64,000 bases of DNA from Sipunculus nudus (taxonomy: Eukaryota > Annelida > Sipuncula > Golfingiida > Sipunculidae), in contig CM049306.1 in NCBI GenBank assembly GCA_026874595.1, forward strand, positions 11,491,019-11,555,018, given 5' to 3'. Within the stretch, counting starts at the first letter, position 1; every line of letters starts with the position of its first letter. The translations under genes were made by a program, and so were the position numbers. The notes under the pieces were generated by a model. It ran no database searches and had not been told where the DNA came from. It saw nothing but the letters and a program-made list of their open reading frames with translations. Positions 17,501-30,660 of this stretch are shown piece after piece.

Positions 17501-20500
17501 ATCATAGAAGCTGTAATTGCACCAGTGTTGCAAAATTTCTTCCCAAAAAGGATGTTTATATTTCATAATATATTTTACATGTTTAGATTCTCCTAGTTTG
17601 AAAAATCCTAAAACAATTTTCCTCCAGACATTTTGTGGACTTTTATCTAATAAACGCTTTATCCATGCCAATATTAAATCTACATTCTTGATTGAAATCT
17701 CAATCATATCCAGGCCTCCTTTTTCAATATATACTATGGAGTTTGTCTTTTTATTAAGTCATTACATCTTCCCCAAATAAATTTATATATACGTCTCTCA
17801 ATTTGTTTCATAAATGATTGACTGGGTGTAGGTAGAACTGAAAGATGATATATCAACTGTGATAAGACAGAATTCTTTAATACAGTTATTTTACCAATTG
17901 GTGTAAGTTTTCGAGCATTCCATACTGCTAATATATTATTTATTTTGATTTTTACTGAGGCAAAGTTTTCATGTACCATATCTTCAAGTGAGGGAGTGAC
18001 CTTCACTCCTAATATTGTTATTTCTTTATCTGTATATACAAGGCCTAAATCTTCTACCTTATTTTTCATATGGTTATTACCATTCCTTAATCTCATAATA
18101 AAAGTTTTATCCTTATTGATTTTTAATCCAGAAAATGATTTAAAATCTTCAAACAAATATAATATTATTTCTATACTTTTATGATCTTCTACAAATAATG
18201 TGGTGTCATCTGCATACTGTAAAATTTTATTTTCTTCACCATATATATTTATACCTTTAATACCTTTTTTTCTGACCTGAATGCTAATATTTCAACACAT
18301 AATTTAAATAAGTAAGGTGATAAGGGGCAACCCTGCCGCACCCCACTTGATACAGGGAAAAAACTTGATATCCACCCATTATTGACTACACAACTTGTAA
18401 TGTCATTGTTTACTGTTTTTATTATTGAGATAAAATTAGAGTCAAAGTTCATATGTCTGAGTATTGTGTACAGATAATTCCATTCTAAATAATCAAAGGC
18501 CTTTTCAAAATCTATTGCCATCAACATAGTATTTAATTTTTTTTCATCTGCATAACTAATTATAGTAATAATTGTATCCGCCAAAACGAAGTTTTACAGA
18601 TACTATGTTTTTGACCGGGTTCCGCCGCCACGTTCGTTTCCGGAGAACTCCGACGAGACTACTGGACAGATTTTTCCAAAACTTACACAAATTATTGGGT
18701 CACATGTGAACCGGTGCCTAACCAAGTGACCTTGACCTCTGACCCTTCCTCTCAGCCCAGCATCCATTCGTGCTTCTGTTTCCACACATAAAACCACACA
18801 TCTCGGGAACCTGCAACCATCTTTGCACAGTGTCCATCTGTTCATCTGCCTTGGGTTAAAATCACTCATATCTCTGCAGTGGTTTGACTGGTTTGACTAA
18901 TTCACTTGAAATTCGGCATGCGTATACATCATAGATAGCTTTCTTGATTTCATGACAGGTGGCACCACCTACCTTTACATTCACGCTGCAGACATCCAAG
19001 CTCATATCTAAGGAACCGTTTGACCAATCAGGAAAAAAATTTTATACAAATGTAGCCCTTGGATAGCTTTATAACATGCACAAAAATCGTGGCGCCACCT
19101 GCAGCCATTTTCGCACAGCGTCCATCTGTTTGTCTGACCTGGGTTAAAATCCCTCATATCTCTGCAGTGGTTTGACCAAATTACCTGAAATTCGGCATGT
19201 GTATACATCCCGCATAGCTTTCTTGATTTTATGAAAGGTGGTGCCACCTACATTCACGTTCACGCTGCAGACATTAATGCTTATATCTCCGGACTCATTT
19301 GACCAATCAGGAAAAAAAATTTACACAAATGTAGCCCTTGGATATCTTTATAACATACAAAAAATGGTGGCGCCACCTGCAGCCATTATTGCACAGCATC
19401 CATCTGTTTGTCTGCTGTGGGATAAAATCACTCATATCTCTGCAGTGGTTTGACTTTTCCACATGAAATTTTGCATGTGTATACATCTTGGATAGTTTCT
19501 CATTCAAATAACAGGTGGCGCAACCTACAATCATGTTTATGTGGTAGAGATCCATTCTAATATGTAACACATGTAAATCTATTTCCCCTTGCCACTCAAT
19601 CCATGCCTCACTTCACCGGTCCTTCTCTGATTTTGGCGGATACACGTAGTCGCTTGTTGACTACCTGTATTCTAGTTTTATTTATAGTTTCTCTGATATA
19701 TCTATCTTTAATAAATCCAGTCTGGTCACTGTTAATCAATTCTGCTAACAGACACTTTAATCTATTTGCTAAACTTTTCATAATAATCTTATAATCAGTA
19801 TTTAATAAAGTGAGTGGTCTCCAGTTTTTTTTTTTAATATTTTAAATCTTTCCCTTGTGTTAAAGAAAACTTACCCAATTGGAATGAATATTGTATAGAT
19901 TTAATAAAATAACTGTTTATATCTTTCCAAAAGAATTTATAAAATTCAGTAATAAGGCCATCAGTGCCTGGAGATTTTCCATTTTTCATTGTATTTAAGA
20001 TTTTAAATAATTCTTCATCATTTAATTCTTCAGACCATGTTATGTCAGTATTGGGTATATTTATCTGATATATATCTAGAAAGCTATTTAATTTGTTTGC
20101 ATTGTATTTAATATTAGGATCCTTCTCACAAAAGTTTGTGAATTACATGTAAGGAATGTATTTTACATCATGTTTACAGGTAAACTTTGGGGTTTATAGT
20201 CTGATATCATGGATGGTGTCAGTCCCATCTTTACAGTTCACACTTTGCCTTCCTACTAATTCTAGTAACAAGCATGCAGCTCAATATCAGCTTTGGAAAG
20301 TTATTTAATTCAGGGAAATATTATGCTGCGCAGAATGGCAGACCAACTCTTCGCAATATGAGAGAAACTTATTGAAAAGATATATATCCTTTTGAACATC
20401 TCTGTTACTATTAAATAATAATGGAAAAGGTTAATTAATTGGTGTTTGTTACTGTGAGCTGAGTTTGAGTTGGTAAGTCTCTGTTACAATTAAGGTAAAA

Positions 20501-23500
20501 GTCCTTAATTTTTTTTTAATATTATAAGTTAGTAAATATTCTCATTACATCATTATGTAATATATTTGCACTATTCTGTTAAAACATAATAATGTTGCAG
20601 AAAGACTTTGTATCATTTTAAGGAGATAGTCCTGATATATTAAACTCTCCTGTTTCTAAATGAAAACACCTGAAATAGAATGCCTGAATTATTTATAAAT
20701 GGAAATGCTGTGATTTATTTATTACTCTATTTTATTTATATATATACACATATATATATATATATTTATTTAATTTAGACATTTACACTGAAGATTATAG
20801 ATAAAATTATTAATATTCATACTATTATATAAAGTGTAATATTAAACCAAGCAATTTGATATCATTAACTGTTTATCAGCTGCAATATTCTTTTCTCCAA
20901 CTGGACACTAATAAATAAGTTTCTATTAAACATGTTTCATGACTGATTTTTGGTAACAAATATACAGTGCTCTAATGAGTTCCACCTGAGTGACTCCAGC
21001 TACTCAGGACTCAGTGACAGTTAGAGCAGGTTTGAGTCAACAAACTGATGAGTAATTAATTAACCTCCAAACAAACTCATAAACATCACTCCCTGGCTCA
21101 AGGAGATTAGTGTGATAAATTATTGTACAGTGATGTCATTGTTAGTGTCACTTGTAAGGTGTTGACAAAAACTCGTGTCAAACCTGTCAGTTTGTATGAT
21201 GGAGTATAAATACTGAGCTCATGTTGTGAGTACATCACACAGTGACTGAGTAACCATCCAGTAACACTGCTCTTGTTGTTAGTAATCATCACTTCATCAT
21301 GAATCTACTTCAGACCAGATTCCAGATTGTGGGACAAACATCACAGACCCATACACAGGGGTCATACCAAGGACAACAGGGATACCACAAAAACCATCAG
21401 TACCTGAGTAATACACAGAGGGCAGCACAGATTCCTGGTACTCAGCTGTATCCTCACTATGGCTACCCAGAATACCATTCACCACAGTATGGAGGTGTCA
21501 CCACAGGACTGCACCACATGGACATGTGCAGATACAGCACCACACCAGCACAGCCAGGGGTTCATCCAGCATCAGGCTACTCACCAGCAGTCAGCAGCTA
21601 CATGTTCCCCCAGTGGAGCTACCCCAGCCAGCAGTATCTGTACCCAGGGACCAATGTACCCAGCAGTCCCCAGATGATGTACTACACACCTGTACACTCT
21701 ACACCCAATTGGCACTCACAGGTCACCAGAGGTCAGGGGTCAAGGTTCACTCAGGATCTGTCTAGCAGCAAACAGAGCTTCAACAACACACCATCAACCA
21801 CCAGAGACTCAGGGATACAGGGATTGTATTTAAGATTTTAAATAATTCTTCATCATTTAATTCTTCAGACCATGTTATGTCAGTATTGGGTATATTTATC
21901 TGATATATATCTAGAAAGCTATTTAATTTGTTTGCATTGTATTTAATATTAGGATCCTTCTCACAAAAGTTTGTGAATTACATGTAAGGAATGTATTTTA
22001 CATCATGTTTACAGGTAAACTTTGGGGTTTATAGTCTGATATCATGGATGGTGTCAGTCCCATCTTTACAGTTCACACTTTGCCTTCCTACTAATTCTAG
22101 TAACAAGCATGCAGCTCAATATCAGCTTTGGAAAGTTATTTAATTCAGGGAAATATTATGCTGCGCAGAATGGCAGACCAACTCTTCGCAATATGAGAGA
22201 AACTTATTGAAAAGATATATATCCTTTTGAACATCTCTGTTACTATTAAATAATAATGGAAAAGGTTAATTAATTGGTGTTTGTTACTGTGAGCTGAGTT
22301 TGAGTTGGTAAGTCTCTGTTACAATTAAGGTAAAAGTCCTTAATTTTTTTTTAATATTATAAGTTAGTAAATATTCTCATTACATCATTATGTAATATAT
22401 TTGCACTATTCTGTTAAAACATAATAATGTTGCAGAAAGACTTTGTATCATTTTAAGGAGATAGTCCTGATATATTAAACTCTCCTGTTTCTAAATGAAA
22501 ACACCTGAAATAGAATGCCAAGACTTACAACAGGGATACCACAAAAACCATCAGTACCTGAGTAATACACAGAGGGCAGCACAGATTCCTGGTACTCAGC
22601 TGTATCCTCACTATGGCTACCCAGAATACCATTCACCACAGTATGGAGGTGTCACCACAGGACTGCACCACATGGACATGTGCAGATACAGCACCACACC
22701 AGCACAGCCAGGGGTTCATCCAGCATCAGGCTACTCACCAGCAGTCAGCAGCTACATGTTCCCCCAGTGGAGCTACCCCAGCCAGCAGTATCTGTACCCA
22801 GGGACCAATGTACCCAGCAGTCCCCAGATGATGTACTACACACCTGTACACTCTACACCCAATTGGCACTCACAGGTCACCAGAGGTCAGGGGTCAAGGT
22901 TCACTCAGGATCTGTCTAGCAGCAAACAGAGCTTCAACAACACACCATCAACCACCAGAGACTCAGGGATACACTCTTTACCATCACTGATACTAGAGGG
23001 CAGCAGTAGCTACTCACCAACAGCATCTAAAGACTTAAGAAACAGCAAGGAATCAGAGAATACCAGCAGTCCTGACTGTACCAGCAGAGACAAAAACAGC
23101 ACCATCGCTACAGCCCTGTCACTGTCAGGGATCAGCAAGGAAGATCTGCTTCCTCTTTCACCGCTGTCATTCACCGAGGAAGACGTCTTCCCACCACTGT
23201 CACCAACATCTCTCATCATACGAACACCACACAAACCTGTCACAGTCAACAAGACTCAGAAATCTGTCACCACCACAGCCGTAGTAACCACAGAGCAGCG
23301 GGAGCCTGCCAGCAGTGTCGTCACCTGTCCAGCACAGAGACAGACAAAGACCAAGTCTTAGTCTTGGAGTTAGTTTACAAACACCCTGTCAACACATCTT
23401 GATGTTTACTGAATAGTAATCACCCTTTTCCACAAAATGCAACCGGCAACCCAAAATGTGCTCAGCTGCATTAGATCCGCCCAGTGTTCAATATTACGTA

Positions 23501-26500
23501 TACCTTTTATTGAAAAAACACCAATTTTTAGGATTTTGACCAGTCCTGCTACCTTAAAGAGACTGACTTTATGACATTTTTTTCATGATTTGATGTCCAT
23601 ATCTTTGTTTCATTTCTCATCTTAAGCCCTCAAATCACATTGTACAAAAAGTCATTTAGTATTTATTTGTATAAAGATCTGTAAATAATGTTATGTTAAT
23701 CACTTTATGTGATCAAAATGTGAGTACAGTGTGTCATGTATCATTTTATAATTATGAGAACAAAGTGCCATATGTATATATTAATAAAGTGATATAAAAT
23801 GATATATGCTTTCTTACTTGTGGAATGAGTGTATTTATACAAGTGGGCAGATATCAGTCATATGTAAATAAATGTATATATAACAATAGCTGACAGGAGT
23901 TGTTGAATTATAATATTTGACAAAATAGATTAAAAGATACACAAATATTTATGCATTTGAGTGTCTAAAGTGACATTACATCCCCATTTGAATTAAAATT
24001 AAGGCAAGACAGTCAGTACCCACATCTAGCAGTGGACTCAGCATTTGGTGAAATAATTCATTCTCACCATTCTCACTTGGATAACTTCATTGGTAAACTA
24101 GAATACGGGTAGTCGACAAGCGACTACGTGTATCCGCCAAAATCAGAGAAGGACGGGTGAAGTAAGGCATTGATTGAGTGGCAAGGGGATATAGAGTTAC
24201 ATGTGTTAAATATTAGAATGGATCTCTGCCACATAAACATGATTGTAGGTGGCGCCACCTGTTATTTGAACGAGAAACTATCCAAGATATATACACATGC
24301 AAAATTTCATGTGGAAAGTCAAACCACTGCAGAGATATGAGTAATTTTATCCTACAGCAGACAAACAGATGGACGCTGTGCAAAAATGGCTGCAGGTGGC
24401 GCCACCATTTTTGTTCATGTTATAAAGCTATCCAAGGGCTACATTTGTGTAAAATGTTTTTCCTGATTGGTCAAACGGTTCCCGAGATATGAGCTTGGAT
24501 GTCTGCAGCATAAACGTGAATGTAGGTGGCGCAACCTGTCATAAAATCAAGAAAGCTATCTAGGATTTATACACATGCCGAATTTTAGGTGAATTAGTCA
24601 AACCACTGCAGAGATATGAGTGATTTTAACCCCAGGCAGATGAACAAATGGACACTGTGCAAAGATGGTTGCAGGTGGCGCCACCTTTTGTTGTGTATGT
24701 TATAAAGCTATCCAAGGGCTACATTTGTGTAAAAAATTTTTTTCCCGGATCGGTCAAACGGTTCCTGAGATATATGGATTTATGTGTGGATTGTTAACGT
24801 GAATGTAGGTGGCGCCACCTGTCATTAAATCAAGAAAACTATCTAGGATGTATATGCATGCTGATTTTTAGGTGGATTAGTCAAACCACTGCAGAGATAT
24901 GAGTGATTTTAACCCCAGGCAGATGAACAAATGGACACTGTGCAAACATGGTTGCAGGTGGCGCCACCTTTTGTTGTGTATGTAATTTAGCTATCCCAGG
25001 GCTACATTTGTGTAAAATTTTTTTCCGGATCGGTCAAACGGTTCCCGAGATATATGGGATTATGTGTGGAGCGTTTACGTGAATGTAGGTGGCGCCACCC
25101 GACACAAAATCGAGAAAGCTATCTAGGATGTATATGCATGCCGAATTTTAGGTGAATTAGTCAAACCACTGCAGAGATATGAGTGATTTTAACCCCAGGC
25201 AGATGAACAGATGGACACTGTGCAAACATGGTTGCAGGTGGCGCCACCTTTTGTTGTGTATGTTATAAAGCTATCCCAGGGCTACATTTGTGTAAAAATT
25301 TTTTCCGGATCGGTCAAATGATTCCCGAGATATATGGGATTATGTGTGGAGCGTTAACGTGAATGTAGGTGGCGCCACCTGTCACAAAATCGAGAAAGCT
25401 ATCTAGGATGTATATGCATGCCGAATTTTAGGTGAATTAGTCAAATCACTGCAGAGATATGAGTGATTTTAACCCCAGGCAGATGAACAGATGGACACTG
25501 TGCAAACATGGTTGCAGGTGGCGCCACCTTTTGTTGTGTATGTTATAAAGCTTTCCCAGGGCTACATTTGTGTAAAATTTTTTTCCGGATCGGTCAAACG
25601 GTTTCCGAGATATATGGGTTTATGTGTGGAAACAGACGCACAAACGGACGCTGGGCAGAGACGAAAGGTCAGAGGTCAAGGTCACTTGGTTAGGCACCAG
25701 TTCACATGTGACCCGATAATTTGTGTAAGTTTCGGAAAAATCTGTCCAGTAGTCTCAGAGGAGTTCTCCGGAAACGAACGCCGCGGCGGCGGCGGCGGAA
25801 CCCGGTCAAAAACATAGTATCCGCAAAACTTCGTTTTGGCGGATACAATTATTTATTACTTTCCTATTGAAGTTACATTTCTCAAGTTTTAGGAAAAATT
25901 TTGTTGATTTTTCTCCTTCCTCATACCACCTGACTTTACTTCTGAACATAGCTCTCCTAGTTTTTTCTTCGATTAATTTATTAAATTAATTTTTAATAGA
26001 TTCAAAGTGTTTTTTTTTCTAGGTCTGATAATTCTGAATTTTGCAATCTATTTAATTCTTTCTCTAAGACAGTAAGTTTGTAATTCTTTTTCTTTTTTAG
26101 CTGAGAACTATAACTTATTTTTAATCCTCTGATGGCCATTTTTATAGTATCCCACAGCAGGGAAGGATTTGCTTCTTTGTTATCTGATATTGTATTTAAA
26201 ATACATTCTTTTATCATTTTTATATAATCTTGATCATGTTATAGTGAATTATTAATTTTCCAAAATCCAGGTTCTTTAAAATTGTGAGGATTCTTTAAAC
26301 CTAAAACAATACCTCTGTGGTCCGTTTTATAACCTTGGACTATATCTACTACATGGATAAAACCAACAAGTCCTAAAGATATTAAGAAATAATCTAATCT
26401 ACTTGCTGTAAAGATTGGATTATTACGTGACCATGTATACATGTTAACATTAGGATTAAAGTGTCTCCAGACATCTATTAATTTTAAATCTAAAATCCAC

Positions 26501-27378
26501 TCTTTTATCAATTTACGTGTTGATTTTTATCAGAATGATAATCATCTAATCTATCCATATGAGGCTCCATTACAATGTTCCAGTTGCCTCCCACAATAAC
26601 ATTTTCATTGCACATGTTTTCAATCTGACAAAATAAATTATTAAAGAAATTTATATCTGAATTGTTAGGTGCATATAGATTACATAATGTTACCCTGGTG
26701 TCATCTATAGTGATATCAATAATAATAAATCTCCCATTTTCATCAGAGTATACACTATGTATATCATGTATAACATTATTTTTTTATCAATATAGCTACG
26801 CCTCTTAAAGAACGGTTTCCACTACTAATAGTAAAATGATGACCCATTCAGCTTGCCATTTCATAAGATCTTCTGGAACACTGTGCGTTTCTTGCAACAT
26901 AATAATACTATATTTTTTACCTTGGAGACAATGGAAAAACTCTCTCATTTTCTTACACCCACTTAATCCCCCTGCATTCAGTGATAATATATCTATGTTG
27001 GACATATAAGAAATAAATATATAGTATTACATATATTCAGTTCCATGTATCCAGTTCACATATATATCAGGACCAGTGAGAATATTTCTACAGCAATCAA
27101 TTTGGACTACATAAAAGAACTTGCTGATCAGTATTATTCTGCTAAAGTTGTAAAACATTTCAACTATTTTCACATCCTTATGCCAGTGAGATGTTATAAC
27201 TCTAACAACAACAGGACAAGTGGAAGACAAAAAACACATAAAATTACATAAAGAAACCACAAGTGTATAAGAACACATAGTTAACATCCAAGCCCTTACA
27301 GGCAGTAAGTGCTGCTGAATACTAGACCAGAAAGAGTGCCTGTATAACTGCATCAACATCATGAAAACTGGAAATACA

Positions 27379-27411
<33 letters not shown>

Positions 27412-29299: not shown

Positions 29300-30660
29300 A
29301 TAATTGTATCCCCCAAAACGAAGTTTTGCGGATACTATGTTTTTGAGCGGGTTCCGCCACCACCGTCGCTTTTGTTTCCGGAGAACTCCTCTGAAACTAC
29401 TGGACTGATTTTTCCAAAACTTGCACCAATTATCAGGTCACATGAACTGGTGCCTAACAAATTGGCGTTGACCTCTGACCTTTCCTCTCTGCCCAGTGTC
29501 CATTTGTTCATCTGTTTCCACACATAAACCCACATATCTCGGGAACCGTTTGACCAATCAGGAAAAAATATTTTGTACAAATGTAGTCCTTCGATAGCTT
29601 TATAACATACACAAAAAATGATGGCACCACCTGCTACCATGTTTGCACAGTGTCCATCTGTTCGTCTGCCTTGGGTTAAAAGCACACATATCTCTACAGT
29701 GGTTTGACTAATTCACCTGAAATTTGGCATGTGTATACATCCTGGATAGCTTTCTTGATTTTATGACAGGTGGCGCCACCTACATTCACGTTCACTGCAG
29801 ACATCCATGTTTATATCTCAGGACTGGTTTGGTGTATATTCCTGAAAATTTGCATGTGTTTAGATCTCACATAACTCTTTATCATACAAAAAACTGGTGG
29901 CGCCACCTGCAACCATTTTTGCACAGGGTCCATCAGTTCATTGGACTTGGGTTATAATCATTTATATCTCAGCCACCTACATTCCAGTTTGTGCTGCAGA
30001 CATCAAAGCTCATATCTCGGGAACTGTTTGACTGATTGGGCCAAAATTTTGTATGTTTATAAATGTCATATTGCTCTTTATTATATACAAAACTGGAGGG
30101 GCCACCTGCAACCGTTTTTGCACAGTGTCTGTCTGTTTGTCTGCCGCGGGCTAAAATCACTCATATCTCAGTAGTGATTTGACTTATCTGCCTAAAAATT
30201 TGTATGTTTATACATATTGGATAGCTTTCAAGCGTTTTTGGCAGGTGGCGCCACCTACATTTATGTAAATGCTGTAGACATTCAGGCTTATATCTCAGGA
30301 CTGGTTGGACATATCCCCCTGAAATTTTGCATGTGTATAGATCTCACATAGCTCTTAATCATACACAAAATTGGTGGCGCTACCTTCTGTTTGTTTGCTG
30401 TTGGATAAATTCACTCATATACATGTAGTGGTTTGACTTATCTGCCTAAAATTTTGCATATGTATACACCTTGGACAGCTTTCTGGATTTTGTGGTAGGT
30501 GGCACAACTTACATACACATTTCGACTGCAGACATCCTTGCTAATATGCAACACATCCACTCTATTAACCCTTGCCACTCAATCCATGCCTCACTTCACC
30601 TGTTTTACTCTGATTTTGGCGGATAAACGCAGTCACTTGTTGACTACCCGTATTCTAGTT
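29300..30660 (+). mobile_element. Helentron-like non-autonomous element (family 1), copy 3
   Basis: The 5' end ATAATTGTATCCCCCAAAAC (one substitution) is followed by the GAA-looped near-palindrome and about five half-decayed monomers with GGTGGCGCCACC sites at about 29,769, 29,897 and 30,244. The 3' end ATTTTGGCGGATAA is followed by an imperfect stem GCAGTC..GACTAC and CTAGTT at 30,660. It is more diverged than copies 1 and 2. The flanks here do not show an A|T junction. Confidence 0.82.

What the first reader, a model, noticed from the sequence alone, without database searches (positions are those of the whole stretch)
20146..25852. A Helentron-like element appears to have carried a neighbouring gene into a LINE (3' read-through transduction)
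The two halves of one LINE end at 25,853 (endonuclease half) and 20,145 (reverse transcriptase half), with only about 40 residues missing between them. The insert begins exactly at the 5' terminus of a Helentron-like element (25,852). It passes that element's normal 3' hairpin end (24,096) and continues through about 4 kb holding an intronless gene with TATA box, degron and poly(A) signal. This is the topology expected if rolling-circle replication ignored its own terminator and picked up downstream DNA. Seen: the junctions and the order. Inferred: the mechanism.
Basis: partly seen in the sequence, partly recalled or inferred. Interest (0 to 1): 0.72.

Follow-up and report, generated by a model that had tools for sequence, protein, structure and literature searches.

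The report
Broken homeobox gene beside a transposon
In what appears to be a mollusc genome, a displaced and headless copy of a homeobox gene sits inside an old retrotransposon, joined almost exactly to the tail of a rolling-circle transposon; the junctions are real, but whether the transposon carried the gene there is unproven.

Summary
The architecture is real. One LINE is interrupted by a Helentron-like element (a HINE) whose 3' end abuts 3.97 kb of gene-bearing DNA; against ten LINE copies, 79-84 bp of LINE are missing. Corrected edges: 20,117 and 25,846.

The "gene" is a broken fifth relative of four intact intronless genes 2.7 Mb away on the same chromosome; A and B were tested and carry a TALE-class homeodomain. 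In the window copy 193 bp of a dispersed repeat replace the homeodomain, and a perfect internal duplication splits the rest.

Read-through (end bypass) is not supported as stated. None of the four relatives has this element at the joint; the two that keep that flank lack the TT found beside 32 of 33 element copies read; the far end has filler and a target deletion. The gene's divergence from its nearest relative (about 3.9% per branch) is probably older than the LINE copy (1.8-3.4% by three measures) and clearly older than the element (0.8-1.1%), so the donor is probably missing from this assembly.

I favour repair capture at the element's 3' end (0.42) over independent insertions (0.28) and read-through (0.15). 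New case of a known kind.

The parts
25849..27397 (-). LINE, upstream (endonuclease-side) half
19678..20117 (-). LINE, middle piece, up to the true left junction at 20,117
17618..18573 (-). LINE, reverse transcriptase piece
   Evidence: RVT_1 E 3.9e-14 on ORF 18,249-18,584; 91-93% to nearest copies
18574..19677 (+). A second, more diverged HINE in the same LINE; its empty site is seen exactly in 6 of 9 LINE copies shown
24096..25846 (-). HINE (non-autonomous Helentron-like element): first base 25,846, CTAGTT terminus at 24,096; internal repeats of about 280 bp
   Evidence: of the 39 other places listed, 31 match its 3' end at 99-100% and 8 at 97-98%
24096..24142 (-). HINE 3' end: 12-bp subTIR, hairpin GTAGTCG-CTTGT-CGACTAC 13 nt from the end, CTAGTT
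20118..20124 (.). 7-bp filler (GATCCTT) between LINE and gene segment; 79-84 bp of LINE missing against 10 copies
20125..24095 (+). Homeobox gene segment homologous to paralog B at C1:8,766,826-8,770,946(-): 1.17 kb upstream DNA, broken coding region, 3' flank
20126..20141 (.). Inverted repeat TCACAAA-AG-TTTGTGA at the outer end; 2-4% of positions have one this close
21299..21841 (+). First broken coding copy: start codon, 173 codons of homology, then LINE sequence from the duplication
21823..22519 (+). Perfect repeat of 19,988-20,684 (LINE piece, filler and gene upstream DNA)
22527..23358 (+). Second broken coding copy: lacks promoter, start codon and the first 74 coding bases; holds DSGIHS; ends where the homeodomain should start
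   Evidence: no Pfam match
23365..23557 (+). 193 bp matching the 3' end of a ~1.4-kb dispersed repeat, in place of the homeodomain and tandem-repeat region (977 bp in paralog B)
   Evidence: 34 listed copies at 94-97%

Best explanation
A homeobox gene segment, with its promoter and 3' flank, was joined to the 3' terminus of a HINE that had entered, or was entering, a LINE. I think the join was made by DNA repair and not by rolling-circle read-through. The HINE's 5' end attached at a normal TT target in the LINE. At its 3' end the connection to the LINE was broken: the HINE end stayed exact, as an end cut by its own enzyme would, while the LINE end lost about 83 bp. About 4 kb of DNA from another copy of the gene filled the gap, joined at the HINE with at most one shared base and at the LINE with a 7-bp filler. 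The homeodomain was lost, before or after this, when 193 bp of a repeat took its place; a very recent partial tandem duplication then split what remained. SHOWN: single LINE, HINE ends, deletion, filler, donor family, loss of the homeodomain, duplication. INFERRED: that HINE insertion and gene capture were one event, that the element's enzyme made the break, and that the donor is a fifth gene lost or absent from this assembly.
For: Both the gene segment and the LINE deletion begin at the HINE's 3' terminus, within a base or two, the one place where the element's own enzyme would cut. The far junction looks like end joining: a 7-bp filler, no shared bases, 79-84 bp of LINE missing against 10 copies. 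The HINE 5' end sits where the LINE itself has TT (7 of 10 copies read CTAATTTATTTATTAC in + orientation). A second HINE in the same LINE shows that a normal insertion is exact: its empty site is identical in 6 of 9 copies. The donor need not have held the element, which fits B and C lacking both this element at the joint and a TT there.
Against: Filler DNA capture as reported in print comes with 2-13 bp of shared sequence at the ends (PMC6544945, passages); here there is at most one T at the HINE side and none at the LINE side. The window has one A fewer than the LINE copies beside the HINE 5' end (0 of 10 copies share this), so a separate 1-bp change is needed; the LINE here has only 10 private indels in 2,933 bp. 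No donor diverged by only 1-2% was seen (40 of 492 and 40 of 402 candidates scored). A HINE landing by chance on an older gene/LINE joint gives the same picture.
Confidence: 0.42

Rival explanations
1. End bypass: a HINE lying just 3' of another copy of the gene, in antisense, was replicated past its terminator, carried about 4 kb of gene DNA and landed in the LINE; the far end was resolved badly, with loss of about 83 bp.
For: Order and orientation are as predicted. A 7-bp-arm inverted repeat sits at the outer end, chance 2-4%. End bypass has been proposed for gene duplicates linked to such elements (PMC4067079, sections 15 and 17).
Against: None of the four relatives has this element at the joint. 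The joint in B and C reads CAATA, whereas TT precedes 32 of 33 copies read. An exact insertion should leave the LINE whole, and here it is not. No second copy of the chimera was seen (capped list).
Confidence: 0.15
2. Independent events: the gene segment entered the LINE first by repair, with loss of some 85 bp, and a HINE from the recent burst later inserted at a TT that happened to lie at the gene/LINE joint. The donor could then even be paralog B itself.
For: The HINE is younger than the other parts except the duplication: 14 private changes in 1,675 bp against 48 in 1,975 for the LINE. HINEs are very common (2,150 first-look candidates for the 3' end) and another one hit the same LINE. The missing A beside the 5' end is easier to explain as a repair joint. 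In two of the stretches compared, W and B differ by only 5.5-6.3% (about 3% per branch), close to the LINE's own age, so a transfer from B soon after the LINE arrived is not excluded.
Against: The HINE would have to hit the exact joint among 82 AATT sites (889 TT on the + strand alone) in 7.5 kb of LINE plus insert. That the LINE itself has TT at that point in 7 of 10 copies would be a second coincidence.
Confidence: 0.28
3. Part of the structure is an assembly error, for example a mis-joined haplotype that created the perfect internal duplication, or a false join inside the high-copy HINE.
For: The internal repeats are 100% identical over 1,144 bp; no reads could be examined.
Against: The LINE resumes within about 83 bp on the far side, which a false join in a repeat would hardly give. 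The segment differs by at least 5% from every relative in the cluster, so it is not a misplaced copy of one of them.
Confidence: 0.1

Closest known systems
HINEs / DINE-1-type non-autonomous Helentrons (Thomas et al. 2014, PMC4067079; passages and sections 15 and 17 seen)
   Same: 12-bp subterminal inverted repeats, 3' palindrome 13 nt from the end, TT insertion preference, internal tandem repeats, no long ORF (longest open stretch 114 codons), high copy number
   Different: The 3' subTIR ends 35 nt from the terminus (38-60 given for the mite families); the autonomous partner was not looked for
DINE-1-associated gene duplicates in Drosophila (Kep1, NACbeta-tes, CK2beta-tes, hydra), as told in PMC4067079 section 17
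   Same: Gene duplicate with such an element at or near its breakpoint; end bypass or composite transposition proposed there
   Different: Here target, element ends and a LINE deletion can be read base by base, and the far end looks like end joining
Helitron filler DNA capture (PMC6544945, passages seen)
   Same: Host DNA captured with marks of break repair
   Different: Capture at the outer 3' edge and not inside the element; shared sequence at the joints nearly absent; target deleted
Spiralian TALE (SPILE) homeobox genes (PMC8524836, abstract and passages; PMC5322547, passages)
   Same: TALE-class homeobox genes multiplied in molluscs, partly in tandem
   Different: Clade not assigned by a tree; the window copy lacks the homeodomain and is a pseudogene

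Membership tests
HINE (non-autonomous Helentron) | 12-15 bp subterminal inverted repeats near both ends | tested here: met
   TATCCGCCAAAA one base after the TT target at the 5' end; TTTTGGCGGATA ending 35 nt from the 3' end; the range given for the 3' side in mites is 38-60 nt, so this side is slightly outside
HINE (non-autonomous Helentron) | 3' palindrome close to the terminus | tested here: met
   GTAGTCG-CTTGT-CGACTAC, 13 nt from the end; 8-35 given
HINE (non-autonomous Helentron) | Insertion at TT / T-rich target | tested here: met
   TT before the first base in 32 of 33 5' flanks, window copy included (13 of 13; 19 of 20, 4 of these 20 read by eye; exception L083). The copies are best matches or loci in hand, not a random sample. 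Exact empty site of the second HINE in 6 of 9 LINE copies
HINE (non-autonomous Helentron) | Mobilised by an autonomous Helentron with Rep/helicase/endonuclease | not tested
   no search for the partner was made
End-bypass transduction | Captured DNA starts at the element's 3' terminus | tested here: met
End-bypass transduction | Parental locus with the element directly 5' of the captured DNA | tested here: not met
   Not at the joint of any of the four relatives. The one full-length HINE of the family seen in the 70-kb stretch, tail towards gene D, lies about 6.5 kb beyond D's stop codon and is 87-88% similar. The true donor may be absent from the assembly
End-bypass transduction | Target joined without loss at the new 3' end | tested here: not met
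   79-84 bp of LINE missing, 7-bp filler
Filler DNA capture | Short shared sequence between break and captured ends | tested here: inconclusive
   at most one T at the HINE side, none at the LINE side; true donor not available
TALE-class homeobox (paralogs A and B) | KN-type homeodomain | tested here: met
   PF05920 E 5.2e-15 (B) and 3.5e-15 (A), above cut-off; 64 residues of B match 64 of PKNOX1 (alignment not viewed). C and D were not scanned; their ORFs show the same stretch
TALE-class homeobox (window copy) | Homeodomain present | tested here: not met
   no Pfam match in either piece; homology stops at about 23,358
SPILE | Phylogenetic placement among spiralian TALE genes | not tested
   no mollusc protein set on hand; the PF05920 search of this genome did not complete

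The most novel reading that the evidence does not exclude
A HINE bypassed its own terminator and carried a promoter-bearing homeobox gene to a new site, with the inverted repeat at the outer end as makeshift terminator. If so, the recent HINE burst in this genome could seed displaced copies of fast-evolving mollusc TALE genes.
Probability: 0.15. Interest if true: 0.62.

Novelty: new member of a known kind. Interest (0 to 1): 0.36.

Why it matters
Here the target, the element ends and related genes are all in hand, so the published models (end bypass, filler DNA) can be held against one locus base by base: they differ on the donor site and on the far junction. It also shows one way in which extra copies of mollusc TALE homeobox genes can leave their cluster and die. 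It is one locus, now a pseudogene, with no donor identified, so its weight is modest.

Tried and rejected
Donor = paralog B. B is the only relative that covers the whole segment. Pooled noncoding divergence W-B is 130 of 1,686 (7.7%, about 3.9% per branch if rates are equal), more than the LINE's age by any of three measures (54 of 2,933 = 1.8% against an 80% majority; 48 of 1,975 = 2.4% private; tree branches 0.034 and 0.029), and the coding tree puts W with C/D. But single stretches range from 5.5 to 9.8%, so this is probable, not proven.

Retrocopy. Rejected: the four relatives are intronless too, and the segment includes about 1.1 kb upstream of the TATA box and DNA beyond the poly(A) signal.

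Two separate LINE insertions. Rejected by the fit within 79-84 bp in the 10 copies shown.

The 193-bp repeat as a TTAA (piggyBac-type) element. TTAA follows one end, but the other end of L022 and L023 shows no TTAA. Left open.

Pseudogene decay on the W branch. Not found: private codon changes, silent/replacement, are W 6/9, A 8/8, B 4/9, C 0/1, D 2/3, and the W-B coding alignment of 906 bp has no gap (9.7 expected from noncoding).

Allelic or sister-species empty site. Not available: no other genome of this kind was at hand.

Literature. SPILE, Helitron, TALE homeobox (2 papers hold 2 of the 3 terms, Helitron in neither); Helitron + homeobox + gene capture (2 papers, not on this by their listing); Helentron + bivalve (13 papers listed; of these only PMC4067079 was opened). 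None of the listings shows this case; PMC6118893 and the rest were seen as listings only.
Full report
WHERE. The window is contig C1:11,491,019-11,555,018 of an unnamed 1.43-Gb assembly in 153 contigs. Abundant HINEs and multiplied TALE homeobox genes suggest a bivalve mollusc; the species was not identified and this is inference.

THE LINE IS ONE ELEMENT. A search with the endonuclease-side half gave 43 matches (40 of 172 candidates scored); the nearest ten rows besides the window are 88-94% identical. In copies that can be read across the site, sequence matching 27,397-25,849 is followed after 79-84 bp by sequence matching 20,117-19,673 (10 copies shown, of which L028 and L029 are near-identical). 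The LINE is thus interrupted once here, with loss of about 83 bp. One half carries RVT_1; the endonuclease label of the other half was not confirmed by Pfam.

THE HINE. The element at 24,096-25,846 (minus strand) has a 12-bp subterminal inverted repeat, a hairpin with 7-bp stem 13 nt from the 3' end, the terminus CTAGTT, and internal repeats of about 280 bp. These are marks of HINEs as given in PMC4067079 (passages). The family is young and abundant: the first look gave 2,150 candidates for its 3' end, and the 39 other matches listed are 97-100% identical. I read the 5' flank of 33 copies, drawn from best matches or loci in hand and so not a random sample: TT precedes the element in 32 (13 of 13, window copy included; 19 of 20, of which the script read 16 and I read 4 by eye; exception L083). 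After TATTCTAG, 20 of 20 further copies have TT. A second HINE at 18,574-19,677 in the same LINE has an exact empty site in 6 of 9 LINE copies shown, so a normal insertion leaves the target whole.

THE GENE. Searches with two parts of the segment found, apart from the window itself and short or repeat matches, one cluster at C1:8.757-8.806 Mb (capped at 40 scored candidates each): four intact intronless ORFs of 415 (A), 416 (B), 416 (C) and 402 (D) codons. A and B carry a KN-type homeodomain (PF05920 E 3.5e-15 and 5.2e-15); B's nearest solved relatives are PKNOX1, PBX/extradenticle and Meis. These are TALE-class genes. I call them SPILE-like because such genes are known to have multiplied in bivalves (PMC8524836, abstract and passages; PMC5322547, passages), but no tree was made: the search that would have fed it did not complete.

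Only relative B covers the whole segment (about 20,125-24,092 in the window), with interruptions: W lacks 977 bp of B between 23,358 and 23,545, and B has about 460 bp that W lacks near 23,890. The 977 bp hold the homeodomain and a tandem repeat made of the end of the coding region. In W they are replaced by 193 bp of the 3' end of a dispersed repeat of about 1.4 kb. W also has a perfect partial duplication (697 + 447 bp) that includes the LINE/gene junction and so came later. Its joints carry short insertions next to local repeats, as end joining by polymerase theta leaves (recalled knowledge). No intact ORF remains.

AGES. Private substitutions: HINE 14 of 1,675 (0.84%, against 4 size-matched copies); LINE 48 of 1,975 (2.4%, against 5 copies; EN 36 of 1,227, RT 12 of 748). 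Other measures for the LINE are 54 of 2,933 (1.8%) and tree branches of 0.034 and 0.029; the HINE's tree branch is 0.011. W-B noncoding difference: 130 of 1,686 (7.7%), about 3.9% per branch if rates are equal; single stretches range from 5.5 to 9.8%. The W-B split is therefore probably older than this LINE copy, and the gene probably stood elsewhere before; it is clearly older than the HINE insertion. The W-B coding alignment has no gap in 906 bp, against 9.7 expected from 18 gap events in 1,686 noncoding bp, and its private changes look like those of the living relatives (W 6 silent/9 replacement, A 8/8, B 4/9, C 0/1, D 2/3): the frame was kept for most of that time. Caution: coding and upstream trees disagree (W with C/D at support 0.95; W with B at 0.93), and C and D differ by 2% in coding but 19% upstream, so gene conversion may have mixed the histories. 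The internal duplication shows 0 differences in 1,144 bp.

MECHANISM. End bypass explains the order and gains from an inverted repeat at the outer end (2-4% chance). It fails on the joint in the relatives (B reads GGCAATATCG, C reads GGCAATACCA; no TT, not this element), on the far junction (filler, deletion), and no second copy was seen. HINE-like DNA is not absent from the cluster: an old piece (71-74%) starts about 45 bp past the joint of C, but with its 5' end towards the gene; weaker pieces (64-72%) lie about 2 kb past the joint of B; and a full-length relative (87-88%) has its tail towards gene D, about 6.5 kb beyond the stop codon. Independent insertion needs the HINE to hit the exact joint among 82 AATT sites in 7.5 kb, though it explains the missing A beside the 5' end. 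Repair capture at the HINE's 3' end explains why the gene DNA and the LINE deletion both start there and why the far end is ragged; it lacks the shared sequence at the joints that the filler DNA work reports (PMC6544945, passages). I give 0.42 to repair capture, 0.28 to independent events, 0.15 to end bypass, 0.1 to an assembly error in part, and the rest to the unforeseen.

KNOWN OR NEW. Gene duplicates with HINE-type elements at or near their breakpoints are known in Drosophila, and end bypass or composite transposition has been proposed for them (PMC4067079, sections 15 and 17). This is a new, unusually legible member of that kind. My searches showed no report of it (listings).

Noticed in passing
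19,988-20,684 and 21,823-22,519; 21,373-21,819 and 22,527-22,973: Perfect partial tandem duplication of LINE piece plus gene; either a very recent event or an assembly error.
   Followed up: partly
C1:8,757,700-8,758,400, 8,767,850-8,768,450, 8,792,670-8,793,100, 8,804,980-8,805,330 (approximate): All four homeobox relatives are followed by tandem copies, about 38 bp each, of their own last coding stretch including the stop codon.
   Followed up: no
paralogs C (L013) and D (L005): C and D differ by 2% in coding but 19% just upstream, which suggests gene conversion of the coding part.
   Followed up: no
18,574-19,677: A second HINE, in opposite orientation, in the same LINE; exact empty site in 6 of 9 LINE copies shown.
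   Followed up: yes
29,306-30,660: A third HINE (plus strand) in the window, with TT target and CTAGTT end.
   Followed up: partly
23,365-23,557; L022, L023: 3' end of a ~1.4-kb dispersed repeat, 34 other copies listed at 94-97%; class not settled.
   Followed up: partly
L015 (C1:8,811,531-8,812,690): A full-length HINE with its 3' end facing paralog D, the orientation that end bypass would need, but about 6.5 kb from D's stop codon.
   Followed up: yes
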